From Candidatus Uhrbacteria bacterium (GTDB lineage: Bacteria > Patescibacteriota > Patescibacteriia > 2-12-FULL-60-25): DNA of 64,000 nucleotides. The stretch lies in assembly GCA_016222815.1 (NCBI GenBank), contig JACRQE010000005.1:62001-126000 (forward strand), in the 5' to 3' direction. The position numbers and the translations under genes were made by a program. Position 1 is the stretch's first letter. Each line of letters begins with the position of its first letter. Under the pieces are notes generated by a model, which saw only the letters and a list, made by a program, of their open reading frames with translations, searched no databases and had not been told where the DNA came from. Of the stretch, positions 44,806 to 63,366 are shown in pieces.

Positions 44806-45750
44806 ATGGAAAGGCAACGGGAAGCGATTTTGAGGACGCTGTGCTTCCACGCGGCCTGGAGCCATGCCCCGACATTGCCGGAGTTGATGTTGACGCTGGA
44901 TGGAGGGGAAATCCAAAATTCGAATGTCGTCCTGAGTTTGTCGAAGGACCTTTCAGAACAAGATGTTTCGGAAGAAATAATTCAGCTTAAGCAAGAAGGA
45001 ATGGTGAGCGAAGAGGATGGCAGACTCGGCCTTGTCAAAGAATTGCCAGAAATAATCCAAAACATCCGCGAACGCGATATCTACCAACCGCGGAAGCGCC
45101 GTCGGGCGGTAAAAGTCGCTCGCTGGCTGGCGGCTTTGGGCGGCGTGCGGTTCGTGGCTTTGGCCAACACAACGGCTCTCGGGTCGGCCCGCGACCAGGG
45201 TGATCTGGATTTTTTTGTGGTGTCTAAAGCCGGGACGATTTGGTCCACGCGGTTGCTCGGCGTGGGACCGTTCAAGCTGGCAGGGCTTTTGCCGACTAAG
45301 GACCGTCGGCGCGATACGATATGCTTGTCGTATTTCATCGCCGATGACGCACTCGACCTGTCGCCGCACATGCTGACCCCGGACGACCCTTATTTCCGGT
45401 ATTGGTTCTTGTCGCTCATGCCGCTGTATGATGATGGGATAGGTCAGGAGATTTGGGAGAAGAATGCGGGTTTACGCCAGCGCCATCCTCTGGCGAGGCG
45501 TTGGAGCGTACCGCCGGACTTCTCTTTTAAGGCGGAGTACCGCGTACCGCGTGCTGCGTACCGCGTATTCGAAACCGTCGCTCGCCCTTTTCAGCGACGT
45601 TGGTTTCCGTCGATAATAAAACAGATGATGAACCTGGATACGCGTGTTATGGTAAACGACAAGGTCCTGAAATTTCACGTGGATGACAGGCGGGCGGAGT
45701 TCCGAGAAAAGTATAGAGATTTATGCAGGAAATACGGAATCGCATCCTGA
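44806..45750 (+). CDS. Nucleotidyltransferase-like protein
   Basis: ALANTTALGSARDQGDLDFFVVSKAGTIW (GSx..DxD-like); carries two repeat-derived inserts. Confidence 0.6.
   Translation: MERQREAILRTLCFHAAWSHAPTLPELMLTLDGGEIQNSNVVLSLSKDLSEQDVSEEIIQLKQEGMVSEEDGRLGLVKELPEIIQNIRERDIYQPRKRRRAVKVARWLAALGGVRFVALANTTALGSARDQGDLDFFVVSKAGTIWSTRLLGVGPFKLAGLLPTKDRRRDTICLSYFIADDALDLSPHMLTPDDPYFRYWFLSLMPLYDDGIGQEIWEKNAGLRQRHPLARRWSVPPDFSFKAEYRVPRAAYRVFETVARPFQRRWFPSIIKQMMNLDTRVMVNDKVLKFHVDDRRAEFREKYRDLCRKYGIAS
44925..44960. repeat. Family B half-repeat inside a CDS
   Basis: tgtcgtcctgagtttgtcgaaggacctttcagaac encodes VVLSLSKDLSE. Confidence 0.7.
45537..45567. repeat. Family D repeat inside a CDS
   Basis: gtaccgcgtaccgcgtgctgcgtaccgcgta encodes YRVPRAAYRV. 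Confidence 0.8.
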
Positions 45751-48558: not shown

Positions 48559-50199
<1,641 letters not shown>

Positions 50200-50206
50200 G
50201 GTGAAC

Positions 50207-50223
50207 GTACCTCGTACTGCGTA
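50207..50223. repeat. Family D repeat copy (intergenic)
   Basis: gtacctcgtactgcgta. Confidence 0.55.
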
Positions 50224-50236
50224 TAATTGAAGGAAA

Positions 50237-57754: not shown

Positions 57755-58609
57755 ATGAACCCTGCAGAAATAAAACTAGCCTTGGCTACGCTCGGCGGCC
57801 GGCCAAATAAAGGTTTGGGCCAGAATTTTTTGATAGATAAAAAGACTTTGGAGGTGATTGTGGAGACGGCGGATATCAAAACCGGGGATTTGGTTTTGGA
57901 GATAGGACCGGGGTTGGGCGTGTTGACACGGGCGCTGCTGGATAAGGGTGCGGAAGTCACGGCTATCGAGCAGGATAGGAGATTCGTGGAATATCTAGAA
58001 AAGCCGTACCGCGTACCGCGTACCTCGTACTTGAAAATTGTGCAGGGTGATGCGGCAATCGTGCATTGGCACGAGCTGATCGGAGAGAGGTCGTGGAAGT
58101 TCGTTTCCAATTTGCCTTACTCCATAACCTCCTTGGCTCTGCGTAAGGCTCTTTGGGCGCCGAAACCGCCGGATAACCTCGTCGTACTGGTACAGAGGGA
58201 GGTGGGGGAGAGGGCTACGGAGGTCGCAAGCGACGTGGCGGGCCGTAAAAAAGGAAAGACATCTTTGCTCTCTTTGATGGTGGCATTGTCGTCTGAATCG
58301 GCGAGGGTTGTGAGGCGGGTGCCGGCAGGTTGTTTTTATCCTGCGCCGAGAGTCGAATCAGTGATCTTGCAGATCGTGCCGATGCCGTGGGTCGAACGCG
58401 AAAAGAAGTGGGGAATCCATCCGGATAAGATCATGGAAGTAGCGAAAATGGGTTTCGCACATCCAAGGAAGAAATTGGCGTCGAATATCGCGACGATTGT
58501 ACCGCGTACCGCGTACCGCGTATTTAAGGAATTAGGATTGGATGAGAATATCCGTGCCGAGGATTTGTCGCCGGAGGATTGGGCGAGGTTGGCGAAGGAA
58601 TTGTTATAA
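57755..58609 (+). CDS. rsmA: 16S rRNA (adenine1518/1519-N6)-dimethyltransferase
   Basis: KGLGQNFLIDKKTLEVIVETADI...VLEIGPGLGVLTRALL...SNLPYSITSLALRKAL. Confidence 0.94.
   Translation: MNPAEIKLALATLGGRPNKGLGQNFLIDKKTLEVIVETADIKTGDLVLEIGPGLGVLTRALLDKGAEVTAIEQDRRFVEYLEKPYRVPRTSYLKIVQGDAAIVHWHELIGERSWKFVSNLPYSITSLALRKALWAPKPPDNLVVLVQREVGERATEVASDVAGRKKGKTSLLSLMVALSSESARVVRRVPAGCFYPAPRVESVILQIVPMPWVEREKKWGIHPDKIMEVAKMGFAHPRKKLASNIATIVPRTAYRVFKELGLDENIRAEDLSPEDWARLAKELL
58006..58030. repeat. Family D repeat inside rsmA, copy 1
   Basis: gtaccgcgtaccgcgtacctcgtac encodes YRVPRTSY. Confidence 0.8.
58499..58522. repeat. Family D repeat inside rsmA, copy 2
   Basis: gtaccgcgtaccgcgtaccgcgta encodes VPRTAYRV. 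Confidence 0.8.
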
Positions 58610-63265: not shown

Positions 63266-63344
63266 ATGTTTTGCCTGTATTCGGCCAAAATCCGTAGACC
63301 GAAATGTAAAATATTTGCGGCAGTTTGTCAATCGGAATGATGCC

Positions 63345-63366
63345 GTACCTCGTACAGCGTGCCGCG
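63345..63366. repeat. Family D repeat copy (intergenic)
   Basis: gtacctcgtacagcgtgccgcg. Confidence 0.5.

What the first reader, a model, noticed from the sequence alone, without database searches (positions are those of the whole stretch)
45537..45567. Same Family D peptide (YRVPRAAYRV) in an unrelated nucleotidyltransferase-like gene
gtaccgcgtaccgcgtgctgcgtaccgcgta encodes YRVPRAAYRV, nearly the peptide found in RsmA, in a protein with no relation to it. Convergence at DNA and protein level points to a mobile or amplifying DNA element.
Basis: seen in the sequence. Interest (0 to 1): 0.7.

Follow-up and report, generated by a model that had tools for sequence, protein, structure and literature searches.

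The report
Scattered seven-base repeat inside a gene
The odd peptide is a short run of a seven-letter DNA repeat that recurs across this tiny bacterium's genome, inside essential genes and between genes, and close relatives carry different seven-letter repeats at the same spot, so it is a DNA-level repeat rather than a protein motif.

Summary
The 31 bases are real: 4.4 tandem copies of a 7-bp unit, GTACCGC (consensus CGTACYK), in frame in an unnamed nucleotidyltransferase-like gene. RsmA in the same window holds two more copies. The genome has 18 exact double units against 0 for the control pattern, and 37 tolerant arrays in the stretches read. They lie on both strands, inside conserved genes (TrmD, TsaD, DnaE, LigA, TruB, Dus, RpsE) and between genes. 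Arrays peak at four cores (62 of 89 in three congeners, tolerant count), and all 14 close opposite pairs are convergent. In a phylum sample only 4 of 379 genomes match, nearly all hits in one genus. At the focal site the simple-insert picture fails: relatives share xR[LIV]P there, net length differs by 0-2 residues in the genus, and two relatives carry other heptamer arrays at the same site, AGCTACY and GAATANA. The same architecture (heterogeneous heptamers, mostly four units, convergent pairs) is published for Xanthomonas and ascribed to G-quadruplexes (PMC4692102); these units have no G-tracts. So: a new variant of a known, unexplained kind of DNA repeat. The generating mechanism remains inference.

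The parts
45537..45567 (+). focal heptamer array, (GTACCGC)4.4, one unit GTGCTGC; read in frame as YRVPRAAYRV
44806..45750 (+). host gene: unnamed protein family with a nucleotidyltransferase-like core; matched in 17 of 19 genomes searched, own included
   Evidence: name weak
57755..58609 (+). rsmA (ksgA), host of two further arrays
58005..58030 (+). heptamer array, four exact CGTAC cores, inside rsmA
58498..58523 (+). heptamer array, four cores, inside rsmA near its 3' end
50206..50224 (+). three-core array just after the stop of the ORF 48571-50199 (GroEL-like by eye)
63344..63362 (+). weak three-core array, no ORF of 100 aa over it

Best explanation
The peptide is the by-product of a dispersed DNA repeat: an arm of about 26 bp made of four CGTAC cores spaced 7 bp apart (CGTACYK units), alone or as a convergent pair around a short loop. 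Arms have been generated and spread by a DNA-level process (shown: dispersal, fixed period, four-core size, convergent geometry, turnover of the unit between species). I infer a replication- or repair-linked copying process, such as slippage and template switching through a hairpin, or annealing of short repeat-bearing single strands that overwrites or extends local sequence. Copies survive in genes because the array has no stop codon in any frame and lands in loops that tolerate change. No benefit from the peptide is needed.
For: Own genome 18 exact double units, control 0. Arrays in unrelated conserved genes, ten checked with Pfam, plus rsmA, on both strands. Core count peaks at 4: 62 of 89 tolerant arrays in three congeners; with exact cores none exceeds 4 of 85 with two or more; a geometric law fits poorly. 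14 of 14 close opposite pairs convergent, 0 divergent. Eight paired copies fold with z -2.8 to -4.5; the solo focal array does not (0.35). Sampled phylum: 4 of 379 genomes, two of them with one hit. A sister family of units, AGCTACN, is in 5 of 19 genomes, 22 hits in G008, controls 0, and a related array holds the focal site in G003; GAATANA holds it in G009. Two sites differ by exactly +7 residues (three heptamers): TsaD second site against G001 and G002, RsmA first site against G003.
Against: No writing or copying enzyme is identified. Net length at many sites is not a multiple of three units (focal site +2, +2, 0; LigA 0, -1; Elp3 varied), so clean insertion is not shown there. Spacer dinucleotides of paired arms do not mirror each other, so the pair is not a freshly copied perfect hairpin. 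Some arrays are old and vertically shared (TruB, TsaD first site), so ongoing spread is not shown.
Confidence: 0.6

Rival explanations
1. Plain slippage in place: each array grew from a chance double of native codons, with 7 bp favoured by the replication machinery; no copying between sites.
For: At the focal site the array covers codons of a conserved xR[LIV]P motif, and G009's GAATANA array also ends in YRIP. Heptamers are reported as over-represented repeats in bacteria and polymerase slippage was proposed (PMC4692102, passages and Discussion read). +7 residues at two sites.
Against: The same unit recurs at dozens of unrelated sites in one genus and hardly elsewhere in 379 genomes; 14 of 14 close opposite pairs convergent; core count peaks at 4 instead of falling off.
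Confidence: 0.2
2. REP/REPIN-like non-autonomous element moved by a Y1 (RAYT-type) transposase.
For: Convergent arms, short loop, many copies, solo arms as well as pairs.
Against: No Y1_Tnp match in G002 although it carries arrays; the Y1 matches of G000 lie at contig ends, and none of the five Y1 loci read has a heptamer pair; a single arm does not fold; about half of the arrays are genic by my reading.
Confidence: 0.08
3. A functional cis site: an array of protein-binding or RNA-regulatory motifs, as proposed for TAACTGA repeats in Beggiatoaceae.
For: Fixed core number and orientation; many copies just upstream of genes by my reading; three units span 21 bp, about two helical turns.
Against: About half of the copies lie inside unrelated genes on either strand; the unit differs between close relatives; no common function among the host genes.
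Confidence: 0.1
4. A selected peptide motif (convergence at protein level).
For: The same residues in NT and RsmA.
Against: Both strands and several peptides (RTAYRVP and RGTRYAV), intergenic copies, and different peptides at the same site in relatives.
Confidence: 0.02

Closest known systems
GGGAATC (GGGANTN)n and GGGGA(C/T)T heptamer repeats of Xanthomonas and Nostoc (Rehm et al. 2015, PMC4692102; passages, sections 10 and 16 read)
   Same: Heterogeneous heptamers with fixed and free positions, majority of four units, scattered genome-wide, convergent close pairs (70 and 75 cases), neighbouring genes of all kinds
   Different: There 89-93% intergenic and able to form G-quadruplexes, which was offered for the four-unit preference; here the units have no G-tract, about half are inside genes in frame, and the unit changes between close relatives
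TAACTGA direct repeats of Beggiatoaceae, Cyanobacteria, Bacteroidetes (MacGregor 2015, PMC4679880; abstract, outline and section 15 read)
   Different: Mostly just upstream of starts, carries stop codons in forward frames, related heptamers rarely repeated, one indirect repeat reported
Cyanobacterial short tandemly repeated repetitive sequences (STRR; Calothrix heptanucleotides, as cited in PMC4692102; otherwise recalled)
   Same: Heptanucleotide tandem repeats dispersed in a genome
   Different: Sequence, lineage, and in-gene placement
REPINs and Rickettsia palindromic elements (recalled; PMC3116915 seen only as a search listing)
   Same: Short inverted elements in many copies; the Rickettsia ones sit in frame in genes
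   Different: Arms here are period-7 arrays, not unique palindromes; no Y1 transposase partner found

Membership tests
Heterogeneous heptamer-array repeats (Xanthomonas/Nostoc type) | 7-bp tandem unit with some free positions | tested here: met
   CGTAC core, spacer mostly YK: 97 of 109, 80 of 92, 45 of 63 in G000, G001, G002
Heterogeneous heptamer-array repeats (Xanthomonas/Nostoc type) | Most arrays have four units | tested here: met
   62 of 89 tolerant arrays; with exact cores 27 of 85 have four, none more
Heterogeneous heptamer-array repeats (Xanthomonas/Nostoc type) | Close opposite pairs convergent | tested here: met
   14 of 14 in three congeners
Heterogeneous heptamer-array repeats (Xanthomonas/Nostoc type) | G-tracts able to form G-quadruplexes | tested here: not met
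   Units CGTACYK and AGCTACN hold no run of three G on either strand (read)
Heterogeneous heptamer-array repeats (Xanthomonas/Nostoc type) | Strong intergenic bias | tested here: not met
   By my reading, 19 of 37 arrays in genes; 14 of them in 11 genes with Pfam or NCBIfam support
REPIN/RAYT | Y1 transposase in the genome, usually flanked by the repeat | tested here: not met
   0 in G002; none of five Y1 loci has a heptamer pair
REPIN/RAYT | Each arm itself a palindrome | tested here: not met
   Focal arm z 0.35; other single arms not folded
Reverse-transcriptase-written repeats | A reverse transcriptase in array-bearing genomes | tested here: not met
   RVT_1: 0 matches in G000 and G002, 2 in G001, 1 in G003

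The most novel reading that the evidence does not exclude
Bacteria of several phyla possess a sequence-agnostic process that writes four-unit, 7-bp arrays, in convergent pairs, with a unit that is set per species and replaced over time; at one site of one gene three relatives show three different units. The four-unit preference would then come from the writer and not from G-quadruplexes.
Probability: 0.15. Interest if true: 0.85.

Novelty: new variant of a known kind. Interest (0 to 1): 0.5.

Why it matters
It shows the four-unit, convergent heptamer architecture of Xanthomonas in a sequence without G-tracts, inside essential genes of a tiny-genome lineage, and with different units at the same site in relatives. 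That separates the period and size of such arrays from their sequence, which makes the open question of how bacterial heptamer repeats arise testable. It also warns that odd peptides in these proteins (YRVPRTA, RGTRYAV) are repeat DNA in translation, not motifs.

Tried and rejected
Clean insertion at the focal site: rejected after (xR[LIV]P shared; net +2, +2, 0 in the genus). Y1 transposase as mover. Reverse transcriptase as writer: no correlation. Phage origin: the four-unit YK pattern is in 1 stretch of the viral collection. Mirrored spacer dinucleotides in paired arms: not found in five pairs. GAATANA as a genome-wide family of G009: not established, 4 hits against 11 in the reversed control. 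A Pfam, NCBIfam or PDB name for the host gene: none firm. Literature: searches listed nothing that I recognised as CGTACNN arrays or as heptamer arrays inside conserved genes of Patescibacteria; only the listings were judged, apart from two papers opened.

In that set some taxa have far longer arrays (up to 12 cores). For AGCTACN units the two close pairs read (L389, L392) run - then +, which is convergent only if the unit is read as GTAGCTN.

Full report
WHAT IS THERE. The reported bases are present and in frame. They are a tandem array of a 7-bp unit, GTACCGC, 4.4 copies, with one unit changed to GTGCTGC. Because 7 and 3 share no factor, three units give a 7-residue cycle (RTAYRVP, or RGTRYAV from the other strand) in every frame, without a stop codon; this explains the repeated peptide in unrelated proteins without any protein-level cause. 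In the window RsmA has two more arrays, and two weaker ones lie outside long same-strand genes.

GENOME-WIDE. The window is part of a 1.3 Mb genome in 8 contigs. GTACCGCGTACCGC occurs 18 times, its reversed control 0 times; GTACCGCGTACCGCGTA with up to 3 mismatches 87 against 12. In the genus, exact hits are 18 in G000, 22 in G001, 0 in G002 and 0 in G003, but the tolerant form shows that G002 has its own arrays with other spacers (41 against 4 control) while G003 shows none of this unit above control (3 against 16). The core is CGTAC with a two-base spacer, mostly YK (97 of 109, 80 of 92, 45 of 63); CG dominates in G000 and G001, CT in G002. In an even sample of the phylum, CGTACNNCGTACNNCGTAC is found in 4 of 379 genomes: 31 hits in G000, 21 in G002, and one each in two others (G001 and G003 were not drawn).

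ANATOMY. Allowing one mismatch per core, 62 of 89 arrays in the stretches read from G000 (window included), G001 and G002 have four cores, 16 three, 9 five, 2 six; a geometric law fitted to these counts predicts about 22 fours. With exact cores and at least two of them, the counts are 35 twos, 23 threes, 27 fours and no longer array (stretches only, window left out), as expected of a four-core unit that decays. All 14 close opposite-strand pairs are convergent and none divergent (8, 4, 2 in G000, G001, G002; one same-strand neighbour pair in G001). Eight paired copies fold as DNA hairpins with z from -2.78 to -4.54; the solo focal array does not (0.35). Spacers in the two arms do not mirror each other in five pairs looked at.

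IN GENES. Arrays lie inside TrmD, TsaD (two), DnaE, a radical SAM protein (pair), LigA, PrmC, TruB, Dus, a glycosyltransferase and the C-terminus of RpsE, all with Pfam support, and RsmA (two). By my own reading of the ORFs, 19 of 37 arrays are in genes; starts of a few genes are uncertain. RsmA of G001 has an array at a third, different loop (GRTAYRVPRSG). TruB and the first TsaD site carry related arrays in G000, G001 and G002, so these are inherited. At Dus, G000 and G002 carry arrays in opposite orientation at the same place.

THE FOCAL SITE. Between a conserved PDF-type motif and a conserved E..A motif the family keeps xR[LIVF]P or a close form. G000 has ...AEYRVPRAAYRVFE, G001 and G002 are two residues shorter with FRLPLPMW and VRLPLPTF, G003 has the same length as G000. 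In G003 the DNA here reads AGCTGCC AGCTACC AGCTACT AGTTACC, and in G009, another genus, GAATATA GAATAAA GAATAGA GAATATA GAATCCC. Both pass the lag-7 criterion that local shuffles of the window passed 0 times in 20. Thus three relatives carry three different heptamer arrays at one site; the other eight sequences printed show none by eye. AGCTACN is itself a scattered family: 22 hits in G008, 5 in G003, 4 in G009, 3 in G002, 1 in G007, 0 in the other 14, controls 0; it also peaks at four cores, 10 of 17 listed with one region listed twice. At the second TsaD site G003 likewise has another heptamer (AATTCAN) where G000 has CGTACCG and G001, G002 have nothing and are exactly 7 residues shorter. 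Period 7 is the commonest lag in sampled orthologous loci of the family, though loci of G000 and G003 were partly chosen for arrays.

MECHANISM. Shown: dispersal, fixed period, four-core arm, convergent pairing, tolerance in loops, turnover of the unit. Inferred: a replication- or repair-linked copying process. A mix of exact +7 residue changes (TsaD second site; RsmA first site against G003, but 0 against G001 and G002) and zero or odd changes (LigA, MFS, focal site) suggests that arrays both insert and overwrite, or that later indels blur the record; this cannot be settled with the genomes held. Transposase (Y1) and reverse transcriptase do not track the arrays. The arrays are not phage-borne in the viral collection searched (one stretch).

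KNOWN OR NEW. Rehm et al. 2015 (PMC4692102, passages and two sections read) describe GGGAATC heptamers of Xanthomonas: heterogeneous, mostly four units, 70 and 75 convergent close pairs, 89-93% intergenic, and read the four-unit preference through G-quadruplexes. MacGregor 2015 (PMC4679880) describes TAACTGA heptamers. The present arrays share the Xanthomonas architecture but not the G-tracts, the intergenic bias or the constant unit. I therefore call it a new variant of a known, unexplained kind.

Noticed in passing
44931-44947 (+): A second, different repeat in the same gene: palindrome-like GTCCTGAGTTTGTCGAAGGAC, read as VLSLSKD, in a segment about 11 residues longer than in orthologs G001 and G002; exact once in the window, 4 places at up to 3 mismatches against 0.31 expected.
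   Followed up: partly
L243, L260, L314 (relatives G006, G009, G001): Other in-frame inserts in variable loops of relatives, e.g. FLPCRQAGEF in NT, GAGLKPAPTR in RsmA, TPAFAWAGTRPAPT in Dus, which look like translated palindromic repeats.
   Followed up: no
L085, L087, L088, L089: Y1 (IS200-like) transposase fragments sit at the very ends of four contigs of the window's genome, so this element probably breaks the assembly.
   Followed up: no
G161 and G310 (phylum sample): The reversed control pattern CATGCNNCATGCNNCATGC matched 20 times in G161 and 7 times in G310, hinting at further heptamer families.
   Followed up: no
L127, L152, L199, L212, L220 and others: In rabbit Akkermansia MAGs CGTACNT arrays, nearly always four cores, are followed at once by 'ataggc' or 'atgggc' and a short palindrome such as GGCGGCGTCAGCCGCC: a composite repeat.
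   Followed up: partly
G009 genome: Reversed control of GAATANA matched 11 times on one strand, so G009 holds another AT-rich period-7 array.
   Followed up: no
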